Of a DNA stretch of 58,270 bases, positions 7,007 to 55,278 are shown in pieces. Numbering within the stretch: position 1 is the stretch's first letter; every line of letters starts with the position of its first letter. A model generated the notes under the pieces. That model was given only the letters and a program-made list of their open reading frames with translations, did no database searches and was not told where the DNA came from. The DNA is from Chrysochromulina tobinii (taxonomy: Eukaryota; Haptophyta; Prymnesiales; Chrysochromulinaceae). The stretch is taken from positions 1 through 58,270 of the forward strand of contig JWZX01003393.1 of assembly GCA_001275005.1 (NCBI GenBank). The letters are read 5' to 3'. A program made the translations under genes and the position numbers.

Positions 7007-9302
7007 ATGGGTTCCATGCTCAGCTCCGCGTTCATCCCTCCGGGCTCGCTCCTCGGCTGCGAGGAGCTGCCGCCCGCGTTCGAGGGCGGCGAGCCAAAAG
7101 TCGAGTGCCTGCCGCCTTCGCTTGAGGCCGACTGGTTCTGGGGCATGGTGCAGGTGCTCACGCTGCTCCTCATGTATGGGTACATCCTCATGTACGCGTC
7201 CAACATGCTGAGCGAGGGCTCGGAGCTCCTGCTCCTTGTCCCGTCCCTCGCTGGCGTCGTCGGCTCCGTCGTCCTCCCAATCCTGGGCGCCGTGCCTGAC
7301 GGCGCGATCATGCTCTTCTCGGGCCTCGGGCCTGGAGCTCAGGAGCAGCTTCAAGTGGGCGTGGGCACGCTCGCGGGCTCGACAATCATGCTGCTGACCA
7401 TCCCGTGGGGTCTGTGCATCCTCGGAGGTAGCGTAGGCATCGCTGATGGCGTGGCGAGCTACACCGTCAAGAAGCCCAAGCACGGCTCGCTCACAGCAGA
7501 GGAGGTCAGGGCGCAGCGGATGAAGGGCGACGTGTTCGGTGTGATGCCGAGCAAGACGATAGCGCTCAACGCGCGCATCATGCTCCTCACCTCCCTCATC
7601 TACCTCATCATCCAGGGGCCCGCCTTCGCCTACTCGCGCTCCGCGCCCACGAATGCGAACGCGACCGAAGAGCTCAACGAGGAAGTCGCCGCCGTCGAGC
7701 ACGGCTGGGCCCTGTACGGGCTGCTCGTGGCCATCGCGGGTTTCGTCACGTACTTGGTGATCATGGTGGGCCAGTCCGACGACGACGTCAAGCAGCAGAA
7801 GGTCGAAGAGGCCATGAAGAAGGAGCTGAGCGCAGGCAGGCGCACAACGATCCTCGGACTAGTCCAGCCGCTGGTCGCGATGCATGCGAACTCGTCGGCG
7901 ACCGACACAAAGGCGGTGTCGCTGCTCGAGATGGCGCCCGAACGCAAGAAGATCGAGGCGCTGCTCACGCCGTACTTTGACAAGTACGACACCGACGGCA
8001 CCGGTACGATGGACGGAGCTGAGGGCGAGTCGCCCCGGCTTAGCTGATGGCGGAGGCTCATCAGCTGATGGCGGAGGCTCATCAGCTGAGGGCGAGTCGC
8101 CGGCTTGTGTCTCTGAGTGGCTCTCTGAGTGCCTCCCTCATCAGGTGCGATTGACGAGGCTGAGCTCAAGTATCTCCTGAAAGACCTTGGCGCGCGGGAC
8201 ATTGGCAAGAAGGAGGCGGCCATGTGGATGAAACGGCTCGACAGGAACGAGGACGGCCAGCTCGGCCGCGATGAGCTGCTCGATGCAGTGCTCACCTTCA
8301 TCAAGGAACAGCATGCCGCCGTCGCGCGCGAAAAGTCAATCGCCAATCTCGGCGTGACTCTCGGGGGCGAGCAGGGAGGTGTCTTGGGCATTCCTAATTT
8401 GGGCATCGCGGAGTTCTTCACGGGCGTCACCAGCAACGCGAAGCAGATTCTCGAGTTCACAGCCACGGCATGGGATGGGGGGTTCTCTCCTACGAAGAAG
8501 CCCCGGCCGGCGCCCGACGAGGTGGTAGCCGAGCCTGAGCCTGAGCCCGAGGAGGAGGGCGAGGACGATGAGGACCTCGAAGTGCCGGAGGACCTTGTGC
8601 ACCTGTCGCCGGACCAGCAGCAGGTCGCTATCCTCAAGCGCGCCTTTTCGATGATGGGGATGGGCACTGCGCTGGTGCGTGCATCTGATCGCCCATCTGA
8701 GTGCCATCTGAGTGCCTCCGAGTGCCATCTGAGTGCCCATCTGGAGTGCCATCTGAGTGCCTCCGAGTGCCTCATATGGTCGCCTATGGCCTCCGAGTGT
8801 GCAGGTGCTCATCTTCTCCGACCCGATGGTCGAGGTCATGTCGAACGTGGGCGAGCGCGTCTCAGTGCCCCCCTTTTACATCTCCTTCGTGCTCGCGCCC
8901 CTCGCCTCCAATGCTTCCGAGCTCATCGCCTCCGTCACGTACGCGCTCAGTACGACGCGATCGCTCGTCGGACTGCCCAACTCATCCGCTCTGCTTGCCT
9001 CCCTCATCAGGTACGCTCGCAAGAAGACGCAAAAGACGATTACTGTGGCGCTCGCTGCCCTCGAGGGAGCTGCCTGCATGAACAACACCTTCTGCCTCGC
9101 GATCTTCATGTGTCTCGTCTACTTCAAGAACCTCGCGTGGAAGTTCAGCGCCGAGACGCTCGCTATCCTTCTCGTTGAGCTGCTCGTCGGTATGGTCGCG
9201 ATGCAGAAGGTAATGACTACAACCACCGCCTACATGGTGTTGGCTCTCTTCCCCCTCTCCATCGTCTTCATCGCCACACTCAAGAGCCTGGGCTTTGACT
9301 GA
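7007..9302 (+). CDS. EF-hand Na+/Ca2+ exchanger-like cation antiporter (NCL type)
   Basis: Four exons (7007-8003, 8145-8674, 8805-8938, 9011-9302) give 650 aa with consistent phases. The alpha-1 repeat is seen in exon 1 (GAVPDGAIMLFSGLGPGA, followed by an AGSTIMLLTIPW helix). The alpha-2 repeat is in exons 3-4 (FVLAPLASNASELIASV and LEGAACMNNTFCL). Between them lies a cytosolic loop with two EF-hands: DTDGTGAIDEAE, formed only when intron 1 is spliced within the loop, and DRNEDGQLGRDE. An acidic stretch follows. Family knowledge: plant and algal NCL proteins with this layout exchange cations across vacuolar or plasma membranes under Ca2+ control. The introns are repeat-filled; intron 3 (72 nt) has no stop and is a multiple of three, so it is easily misread as exon. 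An upstream signal-peptide exon is possible. Confidence 0.9.
8004..8144 (+). repeat. intron 1 of the exchanger: repeat-filled, exon-flank duplication
   Basis: The donor is GTACGATGG and the acceptor CATCAG. The first ~20 nt of the intron (from 8004) are a degraded copy of the first ~20 nt of the next exon (from 8145). The interior repeats GGCGAGTCGCC and ATGGCGGAGGCTCATCAGCT. The 3' end GAGTGCCTCCCTCATCAG is identical to intron units at 35441-35458 and 35503-35520 on the opposite strand. Confidence 0.8.
8675..8804 (+). repeat. intron 2 of the exchanger, GAGTGCC minisatellite
   Basis: GTGCGT donor, TGTGCAG acceptor. The body is built from variants of ATCTGAGTGCC and CTCCGAGTGCC, the same word family seen in introns of four other genes in the window. 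Confidence 0.75.
8939..9010 (+). repeat. intron 3 of the exchanger, stopless and 3n
   Basis: 72 nt, bounded by GTACGC at the donor and GTACGC at the start of the next exon, and ending CCTCATCAG. Splicing restores the expected alpha-2 sequence VTYARKKTQKTI; reading through adds 24 residues within the transporter core. Confidence 0.75.
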
Positions 9303-9380
9303 GGGAGCCTGTGGGGAAACACATCCCTCCTCTTGGGAGCCTGTGGGGAAACACATCCCTCCTCTCCGGGAGCCTGTGGG
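9303..9380 (+). repeat. tandem repeat in the 3' flank of the exchanger
   Basis: Two full units of 32-33 bp (GGGAGCCTGTGGGGAAACAC and following bases) and a partial third begin immediately after the stop codon. Each unit has GAGGGA...TCCCTC arms that could fold. Confidence 0.85.
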
Positions 9381-9787
9381 CTTGGCATCCTTGTCATGGA
9401 TTGAGTTTACGTCGGCTGGCCGCCTTCCTCTCCACTCTCTTGAGAGACGTTACGAAAGCCTGATCTATTCGGTACATTCGCATGCACTCTCGTGAGCCGT
9501 TATACGAGAACCTGGCCTTCGCATTCCTCTGCGCAGCACCGCCGCCGACCAGGTTACGGTCACGTTTATCGTTTTTTTGACTTTGAAAGTCAAAGTGTCA
9601 CAGATTGCGGAGTTGTGTCTGCCTACACGATACCCAGACTGAGGAGAGAGCACAACGCCAGTACCGACCGGAGGGGTATCACGACCCGCGAGCTTCCTGC
9701 CATTCGATTCATCCGCATGCAATGCGGAAAATGTGCCAGACGCTGCGCCCAAATTGTGTCCACGCAATTGCGAATTGGGGGTTTTGC
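9381..9787. other. intergenic or 5' untranslated stretch
   Basis: No separate gene is seen. The frame of the downstream coiled-coil gene is open from about 9605, so an alternative start at ATG 9722 exists. A near-palindrome TTTGACTTTGAAAGTCAAAG lies around 9577-9596. Confidence 0.5.
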
Positions 9788-11944
9788 ATGGACGAGAGCG
9801 GATTGGACCCGTCCGAACTGGTCGTCAGCCGTCTCGCTCTGAACAAGAGGGCTTGCAAGTCAGCTTGGCCTGCGCAGCCTCCGAGCAGCCAAAAGGAGGC
9901 GGAGGAGCGGCTGCGCAAGGTCGAGCAGACTCGCAAGCAAGCCGAAGAGCGTACCCGGCAGACGATTGCAGTCAAGCGTGCACTCGAGCATCGCTTTCAG
10001 AAGCGCGAGTACGAGAGGGCACGCATCACAGAGTTGCAGTCTGCCCTCTGGGATCCGACGGCATCTCGTGCGAGTCGAGCACAGAGCAGCCCGATGAACG
10101 AGGCCCTGCCGCCATCTCGCTCGCCAGCCTCGAGGGCAGGGACGTTCGTCATGGGCATGGTGGTGGGCATTTGGCAAGGAATCGCGGGCTCGACGTCGAA
10201 CGACTTTCGGAGCAATGCTCCCGGGCTGAGCGCCAAGCTCGAGGCCGGGCTCGCTGACGTTGAGGCGGCGGCCCGGAAGGCCGACAAGGCGCGTGCGGAC
10301 GCAGCGGCCCTCGAGCGTGCCAACGAGGAGGCGGGATTCGCCAAGCGCGAGGCCGCCTATCGCTTGTCGATGAGCGAGGTGAGCCTCAAACGCGAGGCGG
10401 AAGAGCGCGAGGCGCGCGAGCGCGCCAAGGCGCAGATGGAGCACACGAATGCTTTGCGAGCTAGCCAGGCGTCGGCGATGGCGGCGGCGCGTCAGAAACG
10501 CAAGCAGCAAGCAGAGGAGAGACTCGCATCCGAGTCGAAGCAACGAGAGGACGAGGCGCGTCGGGCGAGCTCGGAGAGGCACCAGCTGCGCCAGCGGAGG
10601 CTCGCGATGGACGCCTCTCGGGCCAAGCAGGCTGAGGTCGAGCTCGCCGCGGAGATGATCGAGCGATGATTGCCTGCCCTCTGATTGCATGCTGAGTGCG
10701 ACTGATTGCTTGCCTCATCAGGTCGAGTTCGCCGAGGAGCGCAAGCAGCGGCAGCTTGCCGCGGACGAGCGCAATGCACAAGCTCAGCAGCTCGCCGAGG
10801 AGGACCTCGAGGCGGAGCGCCGACGCGCAGAGTGGCGCACGTCGCACGCCGAGTCGAAGCGCGCGGCGCTACGGGCGACGGCGCGGGCCAAGGCGGAGGC
10901 GCACGCGCGGGGAGAGGCCGAGGCGCGCGAACGCTTCATAGCCCAGGAGGCGGGGCGCCGTGCCGGGCACTCGCAAGCGGCCGAGGGCGAAAAGCGCGCG
11001 GCCCGGCAGCATGCCTTGGCACTCCAGGCCGACTGGCGACGCGCTGAGGCGGCCCGTACGCAGCAGGCAAGGCAGCAGGCCGCAAGGGTCGCCAAGGAGG
11101 TGGCCAACACCAAGGAGCTTGCGGCGAAGGCTCTCGCGCAGAGGGTGGTGGCCGAACAGCACACGGCCGAGCTGGCCGCGCAGCAGCGTGAAGACTTTGA
11201 GCGCAACGAACAGAACGAGCGCGAGTGGAATGAGAAGGAGCACGCTCGCCGCGTGAAGCAAGAACGCGAGGAGGCGCTCGCTTTCGTAATTCGGCAAGAG
11301 CGGGAGAGGGAGGCGCGGCAGGTCGCGGCGGTGCGTGAGAAGGAGGAACTAGTGGCTCAGGTCGCAGAGAGGCATCGTCGCGAGGCGGCGGACAAGGCAC
11401 GGAACGCCACCCTGCTGCTGCAGGAGCAGGAGCGCATCCTCAAAAGTACGGAGGAGATCGAGCGCCGGCACGCGGCCAGCCTCGCGAAGGCCGAGCGTGA
11501 GAAACGTGAGAGCTACCTCCGCTCGATCGCCCAGCGCAAGCTCGAGGACGCGAGGGAGGAGGAAGAAAACCGGCAGCTTCGCCAAAGCCAGAAGGCCGAG
11601 TGGGCGGCACAGGAGGTGGCGCGCGTAGCGGCGGAGGCGGCGGCGGCCGCGGCCACGCGCACCCAGCGCAAACTGTTTGGGGGTACGTCCTGATTGCGAC
11701 TGATTGCGACTGATTGCGACTGATTGCGACTGATTGGATTGGCTTCCCTGTCACAGAGCGATCACGACGGATGAAGGAGAAACAAAACCTTCTCCGACTT
11801 ACCGGCCGCATTGCTCTCGAGGAGGCCGCCGCTGCCGCCGCTCAGAGCCGGGCCGATGAGGCGCAGAGGCAATGTGAAGAGGCGGTGGCGCGCGAGCGGC
11901 GCGCGTCAGCAGAGCTCAGCAGTCTAGCGGCCGGGCTGAGGTAG
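9788..11944 (+). CDS. long Glu/Arg-rich coiled-coil protein (TPH/trichoplein-like)
   Basis: Three exons (9788-10636, 10722-11682, 11757-11944), 665 aa, phases consistent. Nearly the whole protein is charged heptad-type coiled coil rich in EAEERxRKVEQ-like runs, apart from a short Pro/Ser-rich and hydrophobic break near residues 100-130. The density of Glu, Arg and Ala resembles trichohyalin/plectin-homology and meiosis/flagella-associated coiled coils, so a cytoskeletal or axonemal role is plausible but unproven; no catalytic motif is present. Intron 1 (10637-10721) is flanked by near-identical copies of AGGTCGAGCTCGCCGCGGAG, and intron 2 (11683-11756) is mostly the 10-mer TGATTGCGAC repeated. 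The ATG at 9722 in the same frame is an alternative start. Confidence 0.75.
10637..10721 (+). repeat. intron with duplicated exon flank
   Basis: The 20 nt spanning the donor (AGGTCGAG... from 10635) and the 20 nt spanning the acceptor (from 10720) differ at only two positions. The interior uses TGATTGC/TGAGTGC words and ends GCTTGCCTCATCAG. Confidence 0.85.
11683..11756 (+). repeat. intron with 10-bp TGATTGCGAC minisatellite
   Basis: Starts GTACGT, followed by four full copies of TGATTGCGAC and a degenerate fifth, and ends CTGTCACAG. Splicing joins G to AG and keeps the coiled-coil frame to the stop at 11944. Confidence 0.7.
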
Positions 11945-15298: not shown

Positions 15299-15545
15299 CG
15301 TATATGCAGCGTCGGGTGTGTATACGCAGGTAGGTGCGCATACGCACCCGACGCCGCGTTTACGCATATGTGCTTGTACGCGGCGGTGGGTGCGTATACG
15401 CAGCGGGTGCGTTTCCGCACCTGGGTGCGTATACGCAGGTGGGTGCGTTTACGCGAGCCCTGGGTGCGTATACGCAGCGGGTGTGTATACGCACCCCCTC
15501 GCGTATACACAGGTTTCTGCGTATGCACCCCCGACCGCGTAAACG
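15299..15545. repeat. TGCGTATACGCA-based minisatellite
   Basis: About 250 bp of irregular units built on the 12-bp palindrome TGCGTATACGCA separated by GGTG or GCGGG spacers. The ORFs crossing it on both strands are by-products of the repeat. Confidence 0.9.
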
Positions 15546-26647: not shown

Positions 26648-26809
26648 TGTTCTGCACGCCGCCGCGAGACGAGAATTAGAAGAGGTAATGACAACGTGAT
26701 GAAAAACGCCGAAATTGACGCCAAACTCGTCAAAAATGTACGAAACTCACCCTGTACGCCGGCGGTCAGTGCCGGTACCGATACGACCCGCGTACAGTTT
26801 GCTTGATTG
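26648..26809. promoter_or_regulatory. 162-bp divergent promoter spacer (SLC44 / QueC)
   Basis: Common 5' flank of two divergent genes. Contains GCCGGTACCGATACGACC, with the GGTACCG word also found near the 5' ends of the FkbM and DoxX-like genes. Confidence 0.35.
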
Positions 26810-27469
26810 ATGGTGGCGGAGCGACGCACGCTGCTCCTCCTCTCAGGCGGCATTGAGTCCTCAGTGCTGCTTGCACAGCTCAAGCACGCTGGGCATACTC
26901 CAATCCCACTCTTTGCTCACTACTCGCAGAGGGGTGTGGATGCGGAGTACGCCGCAGCCTCGGCAGTCTGCTCCGCCTTTGGGTTCGCTGAGCCGCAGCT
27001 TCTTGATCTGCGTGCCGAGGGCTTGGCCCATCAGCGTGTCAATCGATTGCACGTGCCGCTGCCTCATCGCAACCTAGCATTGCTGAGCTTGGCGCTTGGA
27101 TGGGCAACAACGCATCAATGCTCTGCCGTAGCACTCGGCCTCAACAGGGACGATTTCGGCAAGGACGCGGAGTTCGCTGCAGTGGGTGCTGTTCGCTACA
27201 CGACGGGCACACGGGAGTTCGTTAGCTCATTTACGGCGCTCGCGGCCGTCGTCGCGCCCGACGTCGGCATCATGCTTCCACAGGCGCAGCTGAGCAAGGC
27301 CGAGGTGATCCGCGAGGGCATGCGGCTGGGCGTGCCGCTGCGGAGTACGTACTCGTGCATGCGCGGGCGGCCCTTGCACTGCGGCTCATGCTTGCAGTGT
27401 TTAGCGCGGCGGCGAGCCTTTGCGTTGGCCGGGGTCGAAGTGGAGGATGTCGAGTATGAGACGTTGTGA
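26810..27469 (+). CDS. queC: 7-cyano-7-deazaguanine synthase-like (QueC)
   Basis: Single exon, 219 aa from ATG 26810, close to E. coli QueC (231 aa). The PP-loop for ATP binding is LLLLSGGIESSVLLAQL; the usual SGGxDS has Glu in place of Asp. HVPLPHRNLALLSLALG and ALGLNRDDF (in place of the usual GxNxxD) follow. The C-terminal zinc site is C-x7-CGSCLQC (YSCMRGRPLHCGSCLQC). QueC converts carboxy-deazaguanine to preQ0 using ATP and ammonia. Eukaryotes usually salvage queuine rather than make it, so a nuclear QueC-like gene hints at transfer from a prokaryote or another use of the fold. The neighbours are clearly eukaryotic, so contamination is unlikely. Confidence 0.85.
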   Translation: MVAERRTLLLLSGGIESSVLLAQLKHAGHTPIPLFAHYSQRGVDAEYAAASAVCSAFGFAEPQLLDLRAEGLAHQRVNRLHVPLPHRNLALLSLALGWATTHQCSAVALGLNRDDFGKDAEFAAVGAVRYTTGTREFVSSFTALAAVVAPDVGIMLPQAQLSKAEVIREGMRLGVPLRSTYSCMRGRPLHCGSCLQCLARRRAFALAGVEVEDVEYETL

Positions 27470-34454: not shown

Positions 34455-37400
34455 TCATGGTGGCCTCGCTGTCTTGCTGCCGGCCTCCGGCGGAGGCTCG
34501 CGCGCCGCGGGCGTCGCCTTCGGGTCGCTCTGACGAAACTGACTGACCGACTGTCTGTCGCTCTTCGCAGCTCGATGGAGCACTGAACGCACCGTGCGTA
34601 GCTGCTCAGCCACGTCGCCGCCCAGCGGCATGCCAAAACGCGACTGGAAGTCAAGCACCGCCTGGCGTGTGCGTGGACCGTAGACGCCGTCGGGCTTGAC
34701 CAACTCGCGCCCCATCACCTCGTTCAAAAAGAGCTGGAGCATCTTGATGTCCTCGTCCACCACGACCTGTACCGCGCTGGTCGACGCAGCAGCCGAAGCC
34801 GCATGCAGTGCCCGGGCCTCGAGCTCGGACAAGTAAAGCTCTCGAAGGAAGGCCTCGCCGACGGGTGAAAGTTGAGTGCGAGAGCTGGCAGGAGCTGGTT
34901 TCGGGAGTGGTCGGCGGGAGGGCTGCACACTGCTGGCACCCGCCGCCCGCACCCCCGCTGCAGCGGAAGGAGTCGCAGCAGAGGAGTCCACCGGCGCCAC
35001 CGGCGCCACCGGCGCCACTGCCGGCGCCGTCGCCACCGCCGTCGCCACCGCCGTCGCCACCGCCGTCGCTGACGCACCCGCGCTGCCCGCGACGGCGCCC
35101 TCCGTTCGGGTGCCCGCGACGGCGCCATCAGCAGGGGTTCGCTCCGTCCTCAGCTCCTGCAGCGAGAGGCCTGATTGCGCCATGAACGCCTGGACCGCTG
35201 CCTCCGTACGTGGACCGTAGACGCCGTCCACCTTGCAGATATGCTCGCCCATGACGAGCTGCAGCTTCTGCTGGAGCATCACCACGTCCAGATCTACCCG
35301 CTCGTCAAAGCCGCGCACCTGAAGGCACTCAGAGGCACTCAGAGGCACTCAGTGGTACTCAGAGGCACTCAGTGGCACTCAGTGGCACTCAGAGGCACTC
35401 TACTACTCGGAGATCTCGCGAGATTGTCATCTCCACGCACCTGATGAGGGAGGCACTCAGAGATCTGTGCGAGATCTGTGCGAGATTGTCATCTCCACGC
35501 ACCTGATGAGGGAGGCACTCAGAGATCTGTGCGAGATCTGTGCGAGATCTGTGCGAGATCTGTGCGAGATCTGTGCGAGATGGTCATCTCCACGCACCGT
35601 GGAGAGCAGGGACGCTTGCTCGAGCGAGCGCAAATGTGCCCGACGCAGCGCGGTCCACGTGATTGGGCCAACGGTTCCATCCGCGCGGAGGCCACACTTG
35701 ATCTGGAAGAGCTCCACGGCTTGCTGGGTGAGAGGGCCGAAGTTGCCGTCGACCTTGAGAGCCCTTGTACCTGTGGGGAAGGGAGGACGCGGCGCCGTGG
35801 TGAGCACTTGCATGCGAGGCATGTTGCGCCAGCCGTGCTTGAGAGCCCTTGTACCGAAGAAGACGTTGAGGCGCTCCTGCAGGAAGATGACTGCCTCACG
35901 CCGGGGGTCCCAAATCACAAGGGGAGATTCGACGAGATCTCTGACCGGTAATCGGTCGTCTTCAGTGTCTGTGGGGGGCGTCGCGTGAGTGCACCGTCGA
36001 TGGCAATGGGGGGCAATCGGTGGCAATCTCGGTGGCAATCTCGGTGGCAATCTCGGTGGCAATCTCGGTGGCAATCTCGGTGGCAATCTCGGTGGCAATC
36101 TCGGTGGCAATGGGGGGCAATCGGTGGCAAGATATGGCCATCTGTGGCATCAGAGAGGCAACTGGTGGCCCTCACTCGCCTGTGGGATGTCGGCTGAGCG
36201 CTCGCCCGTTGCGCCAGCCGAGCTTCGACTGCCAGCCACGCCCTACCTGTGGGGAAGGGAGGATGCGGCGCCGTGGTGAGCACTTGCATGCAAGGCACGT
36301 TGCGCCAGCCGAGCTTCGACTGCCAGCCACGCCCTACCTGACCTATCTGTGCCGCGTCCACATCTACCGACGCCTCCCCTTCCCCCCAAGCCACGGCACG
36401 CGCCGTCGTGGGCGGGGCGTGATGTCGCGCGTCGGTCGGCGGGGGCGCTGTGGCGGCGTTCTTGCCGGCCTCGTACTGCTTGGCCGTCCAGCCGAGCAAC
36501 CGCAGCTGCTCCGCGTGCTCCTCGTCGCTCACGCGATGGATCTGACGAAACTGGGCGAGCTGCAGCCGCTGCTGCTCGCTCACCACGCCGCCCGAGAGCA
36601 CAGCGTCCAGCACCGAGGCGTACCTGTCGTGGTGGACGGGTGCGGGGGGGCGCGTCGTGGTGGGCGCGAGGGGTCGCGTCGTGGTGGGCGCGGTGGATCG
36701 CGTCGTGGTGGGCGCAGTGGATCGCGTCGTGGTGGGCGCGCGTGATGGGCTGGCCAGCGCCGTAGCGGGCGCGCGTGATGGGCTAGCCAGCGCCGTGAGG
36801 CTTCGTGGCGAGCTCGCGACGGCGCGCCTACCGGAGCCGCCAGAGGGTATCGCGCACACTGAGCCCGTCGTCAGCGCCGCCCTCGTCGTCGACACTGGAG
36901 TTCGGAGCCTGCTGCGCGGGAGCGCCCGCACCCGGGGAAGGGACCTGTGGGGAAGGGAGCCGCATCTTGCGCAGGACGTCCGCACTCTCCGATTTTCGGA
37001 GCACGTCGGCGCTCAAGGCCCGTTGGAAGGCCGCCTGTGGGGAAGGGAGGAGCGGCGCCGTGGTGAGCACTTGCATGCAAGGCATGTTGGAAGGCCGCTG
37101 CATGCAGTGTGAATGGCGAGGAGGGGCGTGCGAGTGTGAATGGCGAGTGTGAATGGCGAGCATGCAGGTGCAGAGCCCACCGCCCTCTCCCCAGGGCGCG
37201 CGGAGTGCAACTCGCCATTCACACTCGCCATTCACACTCGCACGCACCCGCAGCATGGGCTCTCGCTCGAGGAGCTCGTGCAGCGCCGCGCGCGACCAGA
37301 CGAGGCACGTCGTCTGCTGGTTCGTAGTCACGGTCGCGACGCCACGCACGGGCTGCGAGATGGCGATGCCGGAGGAGAGGCCCATGTCGCCAATGAACTG

Positions 37401-38850: not shown

Positions 38851-39650
38851 TTACTTGATGCTGACGACGGCGCCGGCCTCCTTGAGCTTCGCCGCAGCCG
38901 CCTCGCAGTCAGCCTTGCTCGCGCCCTCCTTGATCTTATTGGGCGCCTTCTCGACCGCATCCTTCGCCTCCTTCAGGCCGAGGCCCAGTGAGCTCGCGCA
39001 CGACCTTGATGATGCCGATCTTCTTGTCGGCCGGGAACGACTCGAGGGTGAGGTTGAACTCGGTCTGCTCCTCCACCGGCTCCGCCGCCGCCGCGGCGCC
39101 ACCAGCGCCCGGCGCCGCCATCATCATCATGCCGCCGCCGCCAGCCGACGCGTCAACATCGAAGGTGACCTCGATCGCCTTCACGAGCTCCGAGGCTTCC
39201 AGCAGCGTCATCTTCTTGAGCTTCTCCATGATCTCGTCAACCACGGCGCTCATGTGCACCTTGGACGCAGCCACCTTGGAGGTGGGGTGGAAGGCAGCGG
39301 GCGACATGAAGCCTACGCAGGGCGAGAACACATGCAGCGGGGTGAGTAATGCGAGGCGCGCGAGCCGCGCGCGCGGCGGGAGCGGCCCATGCGGCGAAGC
39401 CTGAGCTGCATTCACGCCAGGCCAAGCCAGCATTCCCCCGCGCCGCTGCTCGCCGCCCTCCTTTGAGGCGCAGCTCAATGCTGCAGCCTCTCTGTGCGCA
39501 ATCACCGCAGCCACCAGCCGCTGCCTGCCCCATGGTGCGCCGCCACAGAGGCGGCAGGCACGTCTCGGCTGCACGCGCAGGCGCCACCACGCGCAGGCGA
39601 AGCGTACCGGAAGCGGCAGCGACGCACAGAGCGAGGACGAGGCGCAACAT
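38851..39650 (-). CDS. rpl12: plastid-targeted ribosomal protein L7/L12, with one apparent frameshift
   Basis: Exon 1 (39650-39608) encodes [14 protein letters not shown], a signal peptide. After a 295-nt intron (39607-39313), exon 2 begins [13 protein letters not shown], the transit part. The mature protein follows: [48 protein letters not shown], then [20 protein letters not shown] and the C-terminus. This is bacterial-type L7/L12, the stalk protein that recruits translation factors, here bound for the plastid by a bipartite presequence. Between RELTG and LGLKE the frame shifts by one base at CCC 38984-38986 (GGG on the coding strand; GG would restore it). No intron fits there, so an assembly indel or a broken copy is likely. 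Confidence 0.85.
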
Positions 39651-39937: not shown

Positions 39938-42900
39938 ATGCACGAGAGAGCCATGGGGCTCCGCTGGCTGGCACCGCTGCTGCTGCCTTCACTCGTGGTG
40001 GCGCTCAGGCCGCGCATCGTCATGTTACGGGTCTCCGATCCCACTGACCGGGATCAGAACTTTGGCGAGGGCGACCAGCTCGCCGTGAATATCCTTCCGT
40101 ACCTGGGCAATGACGTGTACGTGTTCGAGTCGAAGCGCATACGCCGGCCGAGCCAGCCGGTCATGAATAAGAGCGCCATCGACTCTCTCTTCCGATTCAC
40201 CAGCAACGGGGCCGCCTCGTTCAGCCTGGGCGCAGACTACATCGGGACGTGGGCACCGCCCACAAGCTTCATGGAGGCGCTGTTCATCACGATCGTAAAC
40301 GCGAGCGGCGCCAGCGTCGCCGCGCTCGAGTCGTGGGCCTTCAACGTCAGCTGCGTCCCCAACGCCGTCTATCTGAGCGACCACAGGCCGAGCTTCGACC
40401 AGCCGTGTGACTCCGTGAACATTCCTCCTACCCTCACACAGAGCTCGTGGGGCCTCGGGCGGCCGTTCATCCAGAGCGTCAGATCGGCCTCGGCCGTGCC
40501 CAACCGGCTCATCGCCGCCGGCGACAACATCACCATCCGCTTCGACGCGCAGATCGACCTCACGTCCGCGAGCTACGTGGCGGCGACTAGTGGCCTGACT
40601 TCCGCCCAGCTGCCCGGCTACCTCTTCACGCTGCCGTCGGCGTTTGCGAGCATCTCATGCACGGGCGCGTGGCTCGCCGATGCGCAGACCTTCGTGCTCA
40701 CCTTCACGAGCACGCCGAGCATCACGGCCGCGGAGCTCTTCCCTTCTGGCGACGACTACTTCGTGGGCTGTGCGCTGGACGCCGAGATTCGTCTCTTGAA
40801 CACGTCCACTGTGTGTGCCCTCGATGGGAGCGGCTGCTCTCGACGGCAGTCGGCCGTGTGCTGCAACGCGGCCATGTGCCCTAGCGAGGAAGCCACGGGC
40901 AGCTTCGGCGTTCTTCCCGATGGCCCACGTATCGTGAGCGCCCTCGCCGACGACCCCGACGACGCCGACAACATGGTCAACCGCCTGAGCACCAACGATA
41001 CGGTTGTGCTCACGTTTAGCGGGCTCATTGTCCACAATCTGCTCGCGACGACACACGCCGAGCGACTCTTCGTCTTCTACCGCTTCGAGCCGATCTCGTC
41101 GGCTCGCTTGCCCATTGATCTCGGCGAGTGGAGCGGCGTGTGGCGCGACGTGCTGCCGGCAACAGGCGCCGGCAACCTCACAGGCAACGGCAACCTCACC
41201 GGCAACGGCAACCTCACCGGCAACGGCAACCTCACCGGCAACGGCAACCTCAGCGTGGCGACGGCCGCCGCCGCGGCGGCGCAGATCGCATCGGTTGGGG
41301 GGTACACGGTGCTCACCCTCACGCTGCGCGCCCTCTCGAGCGCCGCCCTCGCGCTCTCGGCGCCCCTCGACCTGAGCGCCTTTTCGATCGGCTGCCGTGC
41401 CGAGACCAACCTGACTGCGCCCCTCGGCCTGGCTCCCGACGGGACCACACCCGTCGCCACCTCCCTCGAGTGCGGGTACACTGCCGGCGGCTTCGACGGC
41501 TCGGTCGCGCCGCTCACGGGCGACGTGGGCGCGATGGCGCCGACGGTGAGCCCCGCTCGACGATTGCCTCGCTCATCAAGTGATTGCCTCGCTCATCAAG
41601 TGATTGCCTCGATTGCTTCGCTCATCAGGTGAGCCTTGCTCGACGATTGCCTCGCTCATCAAGTGATTGCCTTGATTGCCTCGCTCATCAGGTGAGCCTT
41701 GCTCGATGATTGCCTCGCTCATCAAGTGATTGCCTCGCTCATCAAGTGATTGCCTCGCTCATCAAGTGATTGCCTCGCTCACCAGGTGAGCCTCGCTCGG
41801 CGCTACGACGCCGACGACGCCGACTCCCTCTTCGGCCCTGACGACCAGCTGACGGTCTCCTTTAGCATACCGACCGACCTGGGCGGGTACGCTCTTGGCA
41901 CTACGCTCACGCGCGGCACAATCGACGGATGGATTGCGATCTCGCCTCCGCTGGCCGCCGAGATCAACTACACGGGCGTCTGGATCAGCGCTACCCGGCT
42001 CAACATCACCTTCAATAGCGTCCCCGCCGCCACGATGGCCAACGTGAGCCTCTGGCCCAGTGCGATCGCATGCGTGTGCCGTGCGAGCGTCAACGGTCTC
42101 TGCCGCGACGCGAACGGTCTGCACGCGGCGAACAAGTCGGCCGCCGGAGAGCTCTCATGCCTGCCGCAGCTCGTGCCCCTCGACCCAACGAGCGATTGGG
42201 GGGCGCGTCCGGGGCCCTCGATAGTGTCCGTCACCGCCGCCGATGAGGACATCGATCCCGACAACCTTGCCGACGGCTTCTACAGCTCAAACGACACGAT
42301 CGACGTTCTCTTCAGCCAGCCGACCAACCTTGGCAGCCTGCAGCTCGGTGTCGCGTACGGCGAGAGTGTCGTCAATTCGATGTTCGACTTCTTCCAAACG
42401 GTGGCCGGCGCCGACGTGCCCGTCACCCTAGGCAGCTCGTTCTCGGGCACGTGGCTGAGCAACCGGTCGTTCCGCATCCGCGCGATCAACATCGCCACGC
42501 CCGATTCTCGGCCCCTCATCTCGTCCATCAACGCCGACTTCAGCGTGCGCTGCCGGCCCAACGGGCCGTACCCCATCCGCGACGCGGCCCTCCTGTCCCT
42601 CCCTTCGACCTGCTTCTCGGTGCGACTGCTCGGCTCGTTTGGCGCGAACACGCCGCCCATCCTCGCCTCCATCACCGCGAGCGACCCTGACAATGCGGAT
42701 GGCATCCTCTCGGCGGGCGACGTGATCCTCGTCGAGTGGACGCGGGGCACCGACCGAGGCATGTGTGCAGTGTGCACCGACAGCAGCCCGCCCGTGGATG
42801 TACCGGACGGCCTTCTCGAAGGCGCCATGCAGCTCGTCTCGTTCTCAGTGCCCGCGCCTGCTACCGGTGCTGCGGTCGCCCTCAACCTCTCTCTCACCGG

Positions 42901-49246: not shown

Positions 49247-49305
49247 AAGGGGGTACAGGGGACGGATTAGCAACCATTCCTCATACCCTGATTTCAAACT
49301 GAGTG
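49247..49305 (+). repeat. dispersed ~60-bp element, copy 1
   Basis: Shares an exact 18-mer (CTGATTTCAAACTGAGTG, 49288-49305) and an AAGGGGGTA...AGGGGA lead with 57017-57082. Not otherwise recognised. Confidence 0.5.
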
Positions 49306-49353
49306 TGGGGCGTGGGCCTGGGGGGGCGACGGTCGTTAATCGTTCACGTCGCC

Positions 49354-51350
49354 TCAGTGGAGCCGTGCGGTAGGATCTAATCGACCACCTGGCATGGGAT
49401 CTAATCGACCGACGGCATCCTCTACCACCTGCATCGCGCCCAGGCATGCCTCGTCCTTCCACGGCAGTGTTACGATCTGTATGCCGATTGGAAGCCCTTG
49501 GCTCCCACGCATTGCCACATGCGCCGCGCGGCTGAGCGAGTCGTGCAGCTTCCCGCCGTCGTAGAACTGCTCGTCCGCGCGTACAAAGGTCACGGGCAGA
49601 GTGCCAGCTGGTACGTTGAAGAGGTTCCACACGAACGTGTACGAGCATGCCTGGTTGAGCAGCACGCTCATGCCGTGCGGAAAGGCAGGCAAGCCGAGGC
49701 CAGGGCACAGGAGGGCATCGAGCCCAGCGGCGGCGAAGCGCTCGAGGAAGCTGTCGCGCAGCTCGCTCACCCGCGTGATCACCTGCATGCAATGAGGGAA
49801 GCAATCAGAGGCGATCAGAGGCCATCGTAGGCAGTCACCCGCGTGATCACCTGCCAGTACTCGTGAGCCGTCTTGGCTGCGCCCGAGAGCACGAGATCAG
49901 CCTTTCGAGGCTCGCCGAGCCCGTGGCGCATCACGGCGCTGAGCATCGGCCGGATCCAATTTGGAACGCAGGCCACCTGGCACAGGAAAGCATAGTTTGG
50001 GTGGAGTTTCTCGCCGTCGATGCCGTCGAGGAAGCCTCGGAAGTTGCCGTCGGCAGAGAGTAGCGCGACGTACAGCTTCGCCGCCTCGGCCATCTCGAGC
50101 GGTGTGAACTCGACAACCTCGTGCCCCGCGGCGCGCAGCGCCTCCGCCGTCCCGCGCACGGCACGCTTGCATGCCTCCGCGGGCTCGAACCAATGATCAG
50201 TGACAAAGTACCCGAAGCGCAGCGGCTTCGACCCCTCTGAGCCTCTTCGTGAAGGGCTGGTGGGACCTTTGGCTGTGGGACCTTTGGCTCGATGGGCGAC
50301 CGATGCGCGGTCCCAGGGCATGCGAGGGATCGTTGTGTCCGCTGCGTACATTGCGGGCTGGCAGAACGCATGCATCACGAGCTCGAGATCGGCGACGCAT
50401 CGGGCTATCGGCCCTGGCGCAGAGCGCACCTCGCGCTGGCCTGATCGATTGCCGCGGCGGGGCACGGTGATCCCCTTGTACGAGAGACGATCCACAGTCG
50501 GCTTGAACGCGCACAGCCCCGTCATGAACGCGGGGATGCGCACCGAGCCGCCGACGTCGGTGCCGAGGCCGAGAGGAGAGCCTCGCGCCGCGATGAGCGC
50601 GCACTCGCCACCAGTCGAGCCGCCCGGGCTGCGCCCAAGATCGTATGGGTTGCACGTCGTCCCATAGATGGCGTTGAACGTCTCGGGCAGCATGAGCAGC
50701 TGTGGCACATTGGTGCGTGCAAAGGGGATGGCGCCCGCCTGCTTGGCGAGGGTCACCAGCAAGGCAGTCTCCTCCGAAGGAGCCTCAGCCAGGCGGCAGC
50801 ACGCGCCGCAGGTGCTCTGGAAGCCCGCCATGCGAATCTGCTCCTTGACGGAGAAGGGAAGCCCATGCAGCGGCCCCCGGAGCTTGCCCTCGGCGCGCTC
50901 GAGGTCGCACGCTTTGGCCTCGGCGAGGGCCTCCTCGTAGGCCTGCTCGGTGACAGCCCTCAGCGTCTCGTCGACTTCGATGGCACGGGCGATGAAGCAT
51001 CTCATCACATACTCGGCAGAGAGCCGCCCGATGCTCATCGCTCCAAGGAGCTCCGTTGCCGTCATGTTGAGGAGCTCAATTGGTTCGATGAATTGGTTTG
51101 CGAGCTCCGAACCAAATGGCTGCCTCAATTTCGTTCGGACGCGGTGTGCCGCAGTCCACTTGAGGCAACCGTCCCACGCCAGTCCCGCATCCCGAGCACG
51201 AGTAAGGCGAGATTCGAGCTCACGCCGTTTGATCTCGACCAGCTGCCGGTACCTCCTGTGGACGGCATGCGCCGCAAGGCGACGCCAGACGAGCACGATG
51301 CAGCCGAAACCAGCAAACCCAGCGGTGGCGAGCGCGACACACCTCCGCAT
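49354..51350 (-). CDS. fatty-acid amide hydrolase-like amidase (FAAH1 type)
   Basis: Two exons (51350-49851 and 49782-49354), 642 aa. An N-terminal membrane helix (CVALATAGFAGFGCIVLVW) precedes the amidase-signature domain. The catalytic Lys is in LPFSVKEQI, the bridging Ser in SPGGSTGGECA and the nucleophile Ser in GLGTDVGGSVRIP, followed by CAFKPT. FAAH hydrolyses N-acylethanolamines and other fatty amides at membranes; the single N-terminal anchor and length fit FAAH1 (579 aa in human). The 68-nt intron is flanked by a 20-nt exact duplication, and splicing gives HEYWQVITRVSELRDSF. Head-to-head with the 2OG/TPR gene. Confidence 0.9.
49783..49850 (-). repeat. FAAH intron with 20-nt exact exon duplication
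   Basis: GCAGGTGATCACGCGGGTGA spans the donor and again the acceptor. The 68-nt interior contains TGATCGCCTCTGATTGCTTC-type words and ends CATTGCATGCAG. Confidence 0.9.
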
Positions 51351-51565
51351 CGCGCGGACCGTGCCCGGCTTCCCCTCCGCCACCCCTGCGTGGTGCCCAC
51401 CATGCTGAGCGGTGTGAATGTGTCTGTGACCTCTGTGTGATTTCACTCGTGTGCAGGTGAAAAAGTCATTTACGCGCTGCATCTCTCACATTCAAACGAC
51501 CCGCCCGTTACGCTTCACTTGAGAGGAGCGAGGGGGTCGCGATCGGGAACCGAGCCGGGACCAAG
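51351..51565. promoter_or_regulatory. 215-bp divergent promoter spacer
   Basis: Shared 5' flank of FAAH (-) and the 2OG/TPR gene (+). No specific motif recognised. Confidence 0.35.
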
Positions 51566-52903
51566 ATGTTCTCGTCCCCGTGGAGCATGGCCAAAGGCAT
51601 GCAGGCGAATGCGGCCGCTCACGCTGCCGAGCTTTTAGCGAGCGCTGACATCGGCTTCCGGCGTGCTGACGCCGCGGTGCCGGTCGTCTCGTACACCACG
51701 CACTCTGTTGGCCGCAACGCTCTGGGCATGGGCAGTGCATGCCCATTCGAGACGGACGAGCTGGTCGTTGCTGCAGCTGCGCCAGTGTTCACCCAAGCCG
51801 AGTGCTGCGCCGTGGTCGACGAGGCGCGGTCGCTCATTGCCGAAGGCGCTCGGAGCCGCTTCACGATGACTGACACGAACAGGGACGTCGCGGTCGAGGA
51901 CATGCCGAAGACCCTCGCCTGGCTCAACAACGGAGCATTTGCGCGGTTGACGTCCCTCGCAGCAGCCTGCTACCCTGGAGTGGTGGACGATGCCACCGAT
52001 CTCTGGGTGTACCGCGCCTTGGTGATCAACTACGACCACAGCGCTCAGCTCACGCACCAACCCATCCATCGCGACCACTCGCTGATCTCGTGTGTGGTGC
52101 CACTGAGCGAGCGGCGCGAGTACTCGGGCGGCGGCACGTTCATCGAGCCACTCGGTCGCGCCATCGCGCTCGAGCAAGGGTGTGCGCTCCTCCACCCGTC
52201 AGCCGTGCGGCACGCGGGCCACCGCATCACAGCGGGGGAGAGGTGGGTACTCGTGCTCTTCCTGAATACGGTGAGCATGAAGCCCGCGGAGCACGGGCGA
52301 CGCTTCCGGCTACGCGCGCATGAGAGCTTTGCTCGCGAGCAGCTGGCCGAGGATGATGGCATCGATCGGACGTACCTTGGGGCGGCGGAGGCGGCGGCGG
52401 AGGAGGCTCTGGCGCTCACGGACGACGACGACGATGACGACGACGGCTACGGCGATGATGATGAGCTTCGCAATCTGGAGCTCGCGCGTGAGGTGACGGA
52501 GGAGAGCGACCACGAGATCTGGTACGATCTCGGTACGCGAGCTCACGAGCTCGGCGTGCCCGAGGAGGCGCTGTGGAATTACGAGCGCGCGGAGGCGCTC
52601 AACCCACGAGATTCCCTACTGCTCACCAATATGGGTGTCGCCCTCGCGGAGCTGGGGCAGCCGCGAAGGGCGTTCGTCGCCTATCGACGCGCGCTCGCCA
52701 TCGACCCATACAATGTGAACGCTCGTCTCAGCGCTGGCGAGCTGCTGCTCAAGGCGCGGCGGCTGCGAGGTCTCGAGGTGCTGCTCGCCGAGGCGCCTGT
52801 GGAGTCTCTCGCTGCCGATGTAGGGCTGCAACGGCTGAGAGCGAAGCTAGCCCCAGGAGACCCGCATTGCATCGCCTCAAACGAGATGCGCATTAGAGAT
52901 TAG
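51566..52903 (+). CDS. 2-oxoglutarate/Fe(II) oxygenase (prolyl-hydroxylase-like) with C-terminal TPRs
   Basis: Single exon, 445 aa. The double-stranded beta-helix domain (residues ~80-235) has the iron ligands HxD in QPIHRDHSL and the distal His in AVRHAGHRI, with the 2OG-binding Arg in TAGERWVLVLFLN, and a GGGTFIEP turn. A poly-Asp segment follows, then two to three TPR-like helices (EIWYDLGTRAHELGVPEEAL, ALNPRDSLLLTNMGVALAEL, RALAIDPYNVNARLSAGELL). Prolyl-4-hydroxylase-like dioxygenases use O2, Fe(II) and 2-oxoglutarate; the TPRs probably bind a partner. No signal peptide, so cytosolic or nuclear. Substrate unknown. Confidence 0.85.
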   Translation: MFSSPWSMAKGMQANAAAHAAELLASADIGFRRADAAVPVVSYTTHSVGRNALGMGSACPFETDELVVAAAAPVFTQAECCAVVDEARSLIAEGARSRFTMTDTNRDVAVEDMPKTLAWLNNGAFARLTSLAAACYPGVVDDATDLWVYRALVINYDHSAQLTHQPIHRDHSLISCVVPLSERREYSGGGTFIEPLGRAIALEQGCALLHPSAVRHAGHRITAGERWVLVLFLNTVSMKPAEHGRRFRLRAHESFAREQLAEDDGIDRTYLGAAEAAAEEALALTDDDDDDDDGYGDDDELRNLELAREVTEESDHEIWYDLGTRAHELGVPEEALWNYERAEALNPRDSLLLTNMGVALAELGQPRRAFVAYRRALAIDPYNVNARLSAGELLLKARRLRGLEVLLAEAPVESLAADVGLQRLRAKLAPGDPHCIASNEMRIRD

Positions 52904-53182
52904 TGCGGGTACGTATTCATTGAATGGAGGGATTTTTGTGGGGTTCCTATGGGCCTCAGATCTCGCGCGTTAGGATACCGATCGGATCCTAAGCCCCGCC
53001 GAAATCGTCGATCCGGCAGCGATCCGGTCCGGTGGCCAGGTCCATGCCGCCCGCGCGCCTCGGTGTCGGGGCTGCCCTTGCTTCGCCCGCGCGCCCGGGA
53101 ACGAGGCCAAGGCGTGACTTATGACGCGAAGATCAACTACGAATCAATAACGCGCGGCGCTTACTGCCGACAACGGACAAGC
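52904..53182. other. intergenic region between converging genes
   Basis: No gene seen; nothing structural noticed. Confidence 0.4.
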
Positions 53183-55278
53183 TCACGTCAAATCGCGCAT
53201 GGGGTTGCTGCCCCGCGCCGCTAGGTGCTGCACCTGGATCTTAGAATCACTATGTCGGTTTGACCCGCCCAGTGCGTGGCCAGCTGATTGTCGTTGACGG
53301 TCACGGTCCATCCTGACTTTCCTCTTCACGAGACCCTCCTCTGTGCTGTACTCGATGCCGCGGCCCTTGAGAGAAACCGGCAAGCCCGCATACCAAGACT
53401 CGTTGAAGAACAACTCGTCGTTGGAGCGATCAGCGACGCTCATCTGTGCCTCGGGTGTGTCGCGAGCCCAAGGGGCGATCGGAAGACGCCCACCGCACCA
53501 CCCAGTGCTGCTCGCTTGCAACACCTTCACCTGCTTCCGATTGATGTACCAATCAGTGGCAATCAGTGGCAATCAGTGGTAATGAGTGGCAATCAATAGC
53601 ACTCACCTGCTTCCGATTGATGTACCAAAGCTTTGCGATGGAGTCCATGAGCGGCGACGCATTGTAGCGCTGTGCGGTGAGCGCCTCGTGCGCTCCCTCA
53701 CGAGCGTCCGTCGTCGCCTCCAGAGCCGACCCGCACGCTTCGGCCGTCCATCGGTGGAAAGCCGAGGCATTGAGCTCATAGCGCACGACCTGGGAATCTT
53801 CCGCGTCGCGCAGTCTCGAGTCGAGTGGAACGTCCTGATGCACCCATACGAAGAGTTTGTCACCCATAAGTCGCAGACCATTCGATACTGGGAGAGACGC
53901 TATCCGAACCCCCGAATGCCTTCTTACTTGGCAATGGAAGAGCGGGAAGGGTTGTGACCAGCTTCGGCCGTCGGCGGAGCACGAGATCATCAGCGAGGCG
54001 TTTGCCAAGGAGGACAAGTCGTCCACAGAGGCGAAGTCCCCTGCACCCGGACCCGAGCCCGACCGGGGAAAGCGACGCTGCGCACTTGTGCAGTGCACCC
54101 CCGACCAAGAGCTGAGCCTGGGCCCCTCAGCCACAGAGGAGCCTGAGTGGCAGCCAAGGATGGCAGGGTAAAACGCGAGCAGGCGGTCGGTGCGCAACGG
54201 GTGGTGTTGCACGGCAAAGGTGTATATATTGGCAGCGCATGCGTCCGTGCTCTTCAGGCGAATCGACCGCATCGCCGTCCATTCCTGAAGATCAACTGAT
54301 GACGTCACCTGCACGAAGCGGCGGCCGAGCGTAGGGTTTGCTCGAACGTAATGGAGGAAACGTCCGCGAAAGTAGATCAACGAGAAGCGCCCATCGTATT
54401 CGCACACGCCATGGCGAATGAATGGTGACATGCCGTTCGCGTTGACCCTGCCATCGATGCAGCCTTGATGCCGTCCGTCAAAGATCCTCCTGGGAGAGGA
54501 CCAGGCCATGAGGTCCACACTGCTACGATCGCGAGCCGCTGCACTCAGAGCGGCGCTGTCCGCACTCACATGGTAGACACCGTCTTCCATTGAATTCTTC
54601 TCGTCGCCCATGTGCCGACCTCCAATCACATGCAGCCTGCCATCGTACATGAGCAACGCGGCGTTGTGAGTCATAAGGTAGCGGCGTTGCTTCGCTTCGT
54701 AAAGGCGTTCCAGGAGCGTTTGGTTCTCGTCACGCCGCAGCATCGGACGAGCTGCATCCGCTCCCTCCAACTGCGCAAAGCGCAGCTCTCCGTGGATGAC
54801 GCCATTCTTCCACACAAGCCACGTATCGCCACCGCTCTCCACGATGGTGAAGTAGCGAGCAGGAGTGCGCGAGAAAGATAGTGAAACATGAGAGCGCAGA
54901 TGGCGCATGACATAGCTGACTGCGCTGCAGCTTCGGCCCGTCATCCCATGAAGCAGGGCCGCCCTCTCCCTAGGATGAACAGATTTCGCCACGAATCGCT
55001 GCTTGCAGTCGTATGAGCGTGCTCCCGAACTCCTTGTGCCAGAGCTGTCGGAACATCGTAGCCTTGCCATCAAAATAGAGGCCAGCACACTCCTCACGCT
55101 CTTCGCAAGCACGTTGCGCCGTGCGGCTGTCGATGCACTGCCACAGGCTCCTGTTCGGAAGGAGCTCTGGGCCATGGCATTCCTTTCTGGGCCTGCTGGT
55201 GGTTGCCGCACAACCGGGCGGTTCGTACTTGTGCCAGTGCATCCCCGATGACATCGCCGAGGGCACGAGCTGCGCCAC
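53183..55278 (-). CDS. five-bladed beta-propeller (glycosyl-hydrolase-like) protein, 5' end unresolved
   Basis: The 3' exon is 53530-53183, and the main exon is open from 53607 upstream through at least 54890. The main exon encodes repeated blade-like strands (YFTIVESGGDTWLVWKNGVI, ALLMYDGRLHVIGGRHM, VYHVSADS...WSSPRRIF, VCEYDGRFSLIYFRGRFLHY, VTSSVDLQEW, GDKLFVWVHQDV). These resemble GH32/43/sialidase-type propellers, though I cannot identify catalytic carboxylates. Upstream, another frame (55278-54970) encodes a Cys-containing PAN/apple-like segment (SLWQCIDSRTAQRACEEREE then CAGLYFDG). An unresolved intron or frameshift between 55010 and 54890 probably joins them. The intron at 53606-53531 is flanked by a 26-nt duplication. 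Role: carbohydrate binding or cleavage (inference). Confidence 0.6.
53531..53606 (-). repeat. intron with 26-nt exact exon duplication
   Basis: The 26 nt that end the upstream exon and begin the intron (TTGGTACATCAATCGGAAGC then AGGTGA) recur exactly at the acceptor. Between them is only CTGATTGCCA-type repeat. Either copy supplies AG|GT. Confidence 0.95.

What the first reader, a model, noticed from the sequence alone, without database searches (positions are those of the whole stretch)
8004..53606. Introns bounded by direct duplications of the neighbouring exon (AG|GT carried in each copy)
In at least five introns across four genes, the sequence at the donor reappears at the acceptor: 26 nt exact (53531-53606), 20 nt exact (49783-49850), 43 nt exact (36247-36337), 18 nt exact (35771-35854) and 20 nt with two mismatches (10637-10721). 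Degraded versions occur at 8004-8144, 35319-35597 and 41546-41785. Every duplicated segment includes AGGT or GGT, so one copy supplies the donor and the other the acceptor. The variable length (13-43 nt) argues against a fixed transposon target-site duplication and for tandem duplication or staggered-break repair. If general, this genome preserves intron birth in many stages.
Basis: partly seen in the sequence, partly recalled or inferred. Interest (0 to 1): 0.9.

Follow-up and report, generated by a model that had tools for sequence, protein, structure and literature searches.

The report
Introns that copy the neighbouring exon
This algal genome is full of tiny mobile introns that, on landing in a gene, duplicate the next 16-43 bases of exon and use that duplicate as their own start signal for splicing, which gives an unusually clear record of how new introns are born.

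Summary
The repeats are real and belong to a genome-wide system. All five main duplications were confirmed (26, 20, 43 and 18 nt exact; 20 nt with two mismatches). They are insertion duplications around mobile introns (introners), not simple tandem duplications. One family has a core of about 40 nt (GCATGCANGTGCTCACCACGNCGC, pyrimidine tract, CCCCACAG), with 1,645 pattern matches in the 53-Mb assembly against 0 for the reversed pattern. Of 87 copies examined, 70 carry, just upstream of the core, a copy of the exon that follows the intron. In 55 of 70 it begins at the first exon base and is 16-43 nt long (median 28). It supplies the 5' splice site; the element supplies the rest. Two further families behave alike. 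Splicing is supported by reading frame and homology; there is no RNA-seq. Three cases show an intron carrying a scrap of a former host's exon, so introns are copied from introns. A fixed 3' end, variable 5' end and long variable duplications fit retroposition of excised intron RNA (about 50%); a DNA route is not excluded, and no empty site or responsible enzyme was found. Introner duplications in the passages I read are 3-9 bp. New variant of a known kind.

The parts
36247..36337 (-). Introner, core family; 40-nt exon duplicate at its 5' end (36298-36337), second copy in exon 36207-36246
   Evidence: 40 of 40; 43-nt exact repeat including CAG; core 36268-36291; score 40.5
36268..36291 (-). Core motif GCATGCAAGTGCTCACCACGGCGC (branch-site region, inferred)
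   Evidence: exact core match; genome-wide family
35771..35854 (-). Introner, core family; 17-nt exon duplicate (35838-35854; exon copy 35754-35770)
   Evidence: 17 of 17; 18-nt exact repeat; after splicing a full-length PG_binding_1 match (residues 33-90) spans the junction at residue 48
35816..35837 (-). Scrap CACGGCTGGCGCAACATGCCTC: includes 13 nt found in the exon duplicate of the intron at 36247-36337
   Evidence: 13/13 match of CGGCTGGCGCAAC, in register with the core within a 25-nt shared 5' extension
37035..37098 (-).
   Evidence: 18 of 20; score 16 against null 99% 11; core 37055-37078
35319..35597 (-). Intron of the CTCATCAG family built of internal tandem units; flanking duplicate not significant
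   Evidence: score 7.5; splicing keeps one open frame through two PG_binding-like repeats, but the junction (residue 106) lies outside the best domain match, so this support is weaker
49783..49850 (-). Introner, GCATGCAG family, in an amidase gene (fatty-acid-amide-hydrolase-like); duplicate 49835-49850, exon copy 49767-49782
   Evidence: 16 of 16; 20-nt exact repeat with GCAG; spliced protein aligns across the junction without a gap; family
53531..53606 (-). Intron with TGATTGCC-type body; 26-nt duplicate (53527-53552 and 53603-53628) spans AG|GT, so both splice sites lie in the duplicate
   Evidence: 26 of 26; body has many genome matches
10637..10721 (+). Introner, CTCATCAG family, in a coiled-coil-like gene; duplicate 10637-10654 (exon copy 10722-10739), then scrap ATGATCGAGCG (10655-10665) matching the exon of an unrelated gene on C981
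   Evidence: 16 of 18; alignment to L030, 97 of 111; score 15
8004..8144 (+). CTCATCAG-family intron in an EF-hand gene; decayed duplicate 8004-8023 against exon 8145-8164
   Evidence: 16 of 20, score 11.0; EF-hand_1 match at residues 92-115 spans the spliced junction at residue 100
41546..41785 (+). Intron with several tandem [exon duplicate + CTCATCAG element] units; duplicate 41546-41562, exon copy 41786-41802
   Evidence: 15 of 17; internal repeats

Best explanation
These are introners: very short non-autonomous mobile introns. A new copy lands next to a GT (or GC) in coding sequence and duplicates the following exon, 16-43 nt where measured. The intronic duplicate gives the 5' splice site and most of the 5' half of the intron. 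The element gives the branch region (inferred), pyrimidine tract and AG, and removal of GT...AG restores the original mRNA exactly. Insertion, duplication and frame restoration are shown here by sequence, reading frame and homology. The donor-to-core distance is kept near 37 nt, probably because the intron must reach a minimum workable length (inferred). The copied unit is the intron itself, counted from its fixed 3' end and including, in some cases, left-over exon from the previous host gene (shown in three cases). The most likely route (inferred) is retroposition of the excised intron RNA: reverse transcription starts at its 3' AG end on nicked target DNA, the 5' end is often truncated, and repair of the offset nicks makes the long variable duplication, as in target-primed reverse transcription. 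Confidence: anatomy about 0.95, RNA route about 0.5.
For: Family: 1,645 matches against 0 in the reversed control; 561 full-element matches, 484 (86%) followed by GT. Duplicates: 70 of 87 above null 99%; start at exon base 1 in 55 of 70, these 16-43 nt, median 28; first two bases GT 63, GC 6, GA 1 of 70. Two other families: 13 of 19 and 25 of 52 above null 99%. Splicing: of 26 informative copies (both flanks best in sense, length not a multiple of 3), 22 in phase if spliced, 1 if unspliced; amidase aligns without a gap; EF-hand and PG_binding_1 domains span spliced junctions. Carry-over of source exon, in register with the core: 36247 to 35771 (13 nt) and an L015/L017-like exon to L012 (11 nt); C981 to 10637, unrelated proteins. 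Variable 5' end: spacer 0-28 nt in 62 copies whose duplicate starts within 2 nt; at least four copies share a longer ...CCACTGATGACCTGCCTT-like extension. No terminal inverted repeats (2.4 of 10 matches). A non-LTR retrotransposon copy with endonuclease and RT domains is present (L127).
Against: The non-LTR family examined ends in (TTAC)n, not CCCCACAG, so no machine is tied to the introners. Selection for splicing would by itself favour ends in AG and duplicates beginning with GT, so these are weaker evidence than they look. 17 of 87 core copies show no duplicate above threshold, and in 15 of 70 the alignment does not start at exon base 1. In the CTCATCAG family only 25 of 52 have duplicates and 18 of those 25 begin with GT or GC. 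In the frame test 18 of 62 copies had flanks on opposite strands and 4 both antisense. The negative correlation of duplicate and spacer length (rho -0.62) can partly come from decayed duplicates called too short; the lower length limit of 16 is set by the score threshold. The C981-to-window case moved a nearly whole intron into a site that already resembles the source exon, which could be homology-guided. One source-target pair is only 476 bp apart, which suits local DNA template switching. The one allele-like contig pair checked (C101/C235) gave no empty site. No RNA-seq.
Confidence: 0.6

Rival explanations
1. DNA route: a staggered break of 16-43 nt is filled in and a piece of intron DNA (by template switching from another intron, or a stray fragment) is joined in; selection keeps only splicing-competent products.
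For: Variable-length duplicates; one source and target intron are 476 bp apart; Daphnia neointrons are explained by staggered breaks in print (PMC4202315, passages).
Against: The same element ends recur (561 and 1,645 matches); copies end at the intron AG in three families of unlike sequence; duplicates are longer than Daphnia's 4-12 bp.
Confidence: 0.27
2. Cut-and-paste DNA transposon (MITE-like) introners, as described for Aureococcus and other algae.
For: Element supplies one splice site and the target duplicate the other, a design described by Gozashti et al. 2022 (PMC9860276, passages).
Against: Duplicate length varies 16-43; no terminal inverted repeats; 5' end not fixed and can hold exon of another gene; three families share the mode.
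Confidence: 0.06
3. Tandem duplication of an exon segment holding AGGT, later decayed.
For: 53531-53606 uses both splice sites from the duplicate; [duplicate-element]n arrays exist (L019; 41546).
Against: The insert between the copies is family sequence, not exon; spliced frames fit insertion.
Confidence: 0.04
4. Whole-intron transfer by reverse splicing or homology into sites that resemble the intron's own 5' arm, without a true target-site duplication.
For: C981 to 10637: nearly whole intron copied, and the target exon start resembles the source exon over about 18 nt with a 3-nt gap.
Against: Other copies' left arms match their own local exon at up to 43 nt and differ between copies, which needs duplication at each insertion.
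Confidence: 0.08

Closest known systems
Introners with target-site duplications (Gozashti et al. 2022, PMC9860276; passages read)
   Same: Many near-identical introns; one splice site from the element, the other from the target duplicate; splicing usually leaves mRNA length unchanged.
   Different: That paper cites 3-9 bp duplications for earlier families and terminal inverted repeats in 72 of 177 families; its Chrysochromulina sp. example has 4 bp and carries the 5' splice site. [quoted passage not shown]
Amoebophrya introner elements (PMC7789003; passages read)
   Same: Repeated introns with direct repeats at the borders.
   Different: There 3-5 nt direct repeats, 8-20 nt inverted repeats and non-canonical splice sites; here GT/GC-AG and long duplicates.
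Daphnia neointrons (PMC4202315; passages read)
   Same: Intron bordered by a direct repeat of the adjacent exon, attributed to staggered breaks.
   Different: 33 such repeats of 4-12 bp; no single recurring element of this scale in the passages read.
SINE/LINE-type retroposons by target-primed reverse transcription (recalled)
   Same: 3' ends fixed, 5' ends variable, variable-length target-site duplications.
   Different: No tail shared with the LINE family examined here ((TTAC)n); the mobile unit is a spliceosomal intron.
Direct repeats near intron borders (Rogers and Bendich 2025, PMC11782384; abstract and passages)
   Same: Direct repeats at intron borders in many taxa.
   Different: 4-30 bp, mean 11.4, found by hand in 213 introns; not one mobile family with locus-specific duplicates.

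Membership tests
Introner (introner element) | Many similar copies inserted as introns at unrelated loci | tested here: met
   1,645 and 561 pattern matches, 0 in control; flanks of fetched copies differ
Introner (introner element) | Removed by splicing | tested here: met
   Frame test 22 of 26 against 1 of 26; homology across junctions in three genes. Indirect: no RNA-seq
DNA-transposon introner | Short duplication of fixed length | tested here: not met
   16-43 nt, median 28, in the 55 copies that start at exon base 1
DNA-transposon introner | Terminal inverted repeats | tested here: not met
   Mean 2.4 of 10 matching end positions, maximum 6, n = 63
Non-LTR-type retroposon | Variable-length target-site duplication | tested here: met
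   two other families
Non-LTR-type retroposon | 3' ends coincide, 5' ends vary | tested here: inconclusive
   5' spacer 0-28 nt, shared longer extensions; a fixed 3' end is also expected from selection for AG
Non-LTR-type retroposon | 3' end shared with a LINE of the same genome | tested here: not met
   One LINE family (three copies) ends in (TTAC)n; other retroelements' ends not examined
Non-LTR-type retroposon | Copied through an RNA intermediate | not testable with these tools
   -
AGGT tandem-duplication intron | Intron body consists of duplicated exon | tested here: not met
   Body is family sequence

The most novel reading that the evidence does not exclude
Excised spliceosomal introns themselves retropose: any intron RNA with a suitable 3' end can be reverse-transcribed at nicked exons, carrying scraps of its last host exon and making a long target duplication that becomes the new 5' splice site. 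Introns would then be retroposons served in trans, and a copy could record its previous gene.
Probability: 0.4. Interest if true: 0.88.

Novelty: new variant of a known kind. Interest (0 to 1): 0.72.

Why it matters
How new introns arise is an old question. Introners with a visible signature mostly look like DNA transposons with short duplications. Here many insertions in one genome keep both copies of the target, so target choice, cut spacing, splice-site recruitment and, in some cases, the source gene can be read copy by copy. If the RNA route holds, it would be direct sequence evidence that spliced-out introns are reused to make new introns.

Tried and rejected
Rejected: DNA transposon (no inverted repeats, variable duplicate length). 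Rejected: plain tandem duplication. Tried without success: tying the introners to a LINE. RVT_1 gave 26 places; one copy of one family, L127, shows an Exo_endo_phos domain and RT (RT 26.5 bits, under Pfam's 29.6, but 31.9); the 3' tail in three copies is (TTAC)n. L119 and L121 carry RNase H-like domains and look LTR-like; PF14529 gave one place. Tried without success: an empty site. Contigs C101 and C235 are nearly identical (99.97% of 6,667 aligned bases); their one internal length difference, 72 nt, is in a CATCAGAGAGGC array, not an introner. This also shows that the assembly holds redundant contigs, so genome-wide match counts are not counts of distinct insertions; the 87 copies were freed of identical duplicates. 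The codon-frame test on 120-nt flanks is noisy: 18 of 62 copies had flanks on opposite strands and 4 both antisense. The null was inflated by array copies; one search dropped 8 of 95 copies. Of 140 distinct core matches, 43 had no acceptor of the strict form and 2 lay too near an end; these 45 were left out, although several of the 43 do end in a variant such as TTCACAG|GT. For families 2 and 3, 49 and 8 copies with repeat in the downstream stretch were dropped before counting, besides duplicates and edge cases; before that, with array copies in, family 3 had 6 of 27 above an inflated null and family 2 had 47 of 99. One search also listed matches of 8-10 nt between spacers and other exons that are out of register and look like chance. 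One search ended in error in its last step (control) and was replaced. The search (a 1,251-base query) mainly hit arrays; its loci L139-L142 were not analysed. Pfam scans of other window frames served for annotation only. Bit scores of spliced and unspliced PG_binding frames are not comparable (they cover different repeats), so I use only that the domain spans the junction. Papers: six searches listed no paper whose title or abstract start describes introners with duplications of this length; PMC12768974 (passages) treats introners in mirusviruses without the terms target site or direct repeat; Huff 2016 is recalled and Roy 2023 was seen only as a reference; supplements were not read.
Full report
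Observation. The window is 58,270 bases, 63% G+C, contig C2234 of a 53.15-Mb assembly in 2,253 contigs. The first hit with an organism name for its amidase gene is Prymnesium polylepis (55% identity over 68%), so a haptophyte-like alga is likely, though this rests on one gene. Of the three degraded cases, 8004-8144 is borderline (16 of 20), 41546-41785 has 15 of 17 at its ends, and 35319-35597 is not significant when anchored at the splice sites.

What lies between the repeats. Introns 35771-35854 and 36247-36337 share their inner part, and a whole-genome search with it returned 45 matches from 40 scored of 408 candidates. The pattern GCATGCANGTGCTCACCACGNCGC with at most one mismatch has 793 + 852 = 1,645 matches and none for the reversed pattern. 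The fuller form GTGCTCACCACGNCGC-N(2-26)-CCCCACAG has 561, of which 484 are followed by GT. The assembly holds some redundant contigs, so these are matches, not proven distinct insertions. This is a mobile-element family that ends as an intron ends.

The duplication, measured. Copies came from fetched loci: BLAST-listed places, and 87 of the first 100 listed pattern matches, chosen without regard to repeats. Of 140 distinct core matches, 43 lacked the strict acceptor form and 2 lay too near an end. Of the remaining 95, 8 in arrays were dropped, leaving 87. Each copy's downstream 60 nt was aligned to its own upstream 130 nt and, as control, to those of other copies (7,482 pairs). 70 of 87 exceed the 99th percentile and 44 of 87 the maximum. 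The duplicate begins at the first exon base in 55 of 70; these 55 are 16-43 nt long, median 28, the lower limit being set by the threshold. The first two bases are GT in 63, GC in 6 and GA in 1 of 70, and the exon base before the duplicate is G in 71%. Of 295 ordinary AG|GT sites of the window, 8 exceed 11 and 4 exceed 20. Two families with other sequences (acceptors CTCATCAG and GCATGCAG) show the same: 25 of 52 and 13 of 19 above their 99% nulls after array copies were dropped; in the CTCATCAG family 18 of the 25 begin with GT or GC, in the other all 13 with GT.

Splicing. A codon model trained on eight window frames was applied to 62 copies with duplicates. Both flanks read best in the sense direction in 40, antisense in 4, mixed in 18. 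Of the 40, 32 share a frame after splicing. Among the 26 of those 40 whose intron length is not a multiple of three, the frames join in phase after splicing in 22 and without splicing in 1. Removing 49783-49850 continues the amidase frame through the junction without a gap in alignments to P0004 and P0008, where the unspliced frame stops soon after the junction. After removal of 8004-8144 an EF-hand match (residues 92-115) spans the junction at residue 100, and after removal of 35771-35854 a full-length PG_binding_1 match (residues 33-90) spans the junction at residue 48. Removal of 35319-35597 keeps one frame, but its junction (residue 106) is outside that match, so support there is weaker. 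There is no transcript evidence here.

Introns copied from introns. The intron at 35771 contains, between its own exon duplicate and the core, 13 nt identical to the exon duplicated at 36247, in register with the core. Because that sequence is exon at 36247, the direction is 36247 to 35771. L012 carries 11 nt, also in register, found in the duplicated exons of L015 and L017 (these two exons resemble each other, so the exact source is open). The window intron at 10637 matches nearly the whole intron of a gene on C981 (97 of 111). It includes ATGATCGAGCG, which in C981 belongs to a coding exon (LLLLNKVELAGEEMIERV, read as a CobW-like GTPase from memory), while the window protein looks like an unrelated coiled coil. 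So the unit that moves is the intron, with part of its former host.

Constraints. In 62 copies donor-to-core distance is 37 +/- 6.6 nt. Duplicate and spacer lengths correlate negatively (rho -0.62), and their sum is tighter than in any of 5,000 permutations. Minimum intron length is the likely reason. Part of the correlation can come from decayed duplicates that are called short.

Mechanism. Shown: insertion, long variable duplication, recruitment of the 5' splice site from the duplicate, and copying of introns from introns. Inferred: reverse transcription of excised intron RNA at a nick. For it: the mode is shared by families that have in common mainly a branch-like region and a terminal AG; 5' ends vary; a non-LTR retrotransposon with endonuclease and RT domains exists in the genome. 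Against it: the LINE family examined has a (TTAC)n tail, and selection alone would fix AG and GT. Two further oddities: 53531-53606 takes both splice sites from a duplicate that spans AG|GT, and L005 holds a copy whose duplicate begins with CTG, not GT. A search for an empty site in one allele-like contig pair failed.

Compared with what is known. Gozashti et al. 2022 (PMC9860276, passages) describe introners that take a splice site from the target duplicate, citing 3-9 bp duplications for earlier families and showing 4 bp and 8 bp examples. Amoebophrya has 3-5 nt (PMC7789003, passages). Daphnia neointrons have 4-12 bp (PMC4202315, passages). A survey of intron borders reports 4-30 bp, mean 11.4 (PMC11782384, abstract and passages). 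My six paper searches listed no introner paper announcing duplications like these, but supplements and subscription papers were not seen, and this genome may be among those already surveyed.

Verdict. It is a new variant of a known kind, with a testable case for RNA-borne intron birth.

Noticed in passing
window 38936-39574 (-): Ribosomal L7/L12-type frame slips by one base near its C-terminal domain; the next frame continues with a plausible domain end. Sequencing error or real, not resolved.
   Followed up: partly
L019, 1200-2000: Four tandem [27-30-nt exon duplicate + core] units with alternating variants, probably amplified by exchange between duplicates.
   Followed up: partly
L092, L028, L111, L024: Copies of the core family with a CCACTGATGA-like stretch, as in the other family, directly upstream: chimeric or longer elements.
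   Followed up: partly
L127, L129, L131, L132: Family of non-LTR retrotransposons with very long open frame; endonuclease domain seen in L127; three copies end in (TTAC)n.
   Followed up: partly
L163 and L164 (contigs C101 and C235): Near-identical contigs (99.97% of 6,667 bases) differing by 72 nt in a CATCAGAGAGGC array: redundant assembly or two haplotypes.
   Followed up: yes
window 8939-9010 (+): Probable further CTCATCAG-family intron with a weak duplicate (score 9, not significant).
   Followed up: partly
window 4548-5258: Two exact direct repeats of 37 and 64 nt, both 534 bases apart (4548/5082 and 4661/5195).
   Followed up: no
window 15314-15514: Array of 74-base units holding GTGCGTATACGCA-like palindromes.
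   Followed up: no
window 26807-27469 (+): QueC (queuosine biosynthesis) domain frame next to a choline-transporter-like gene.
   Followed up: no
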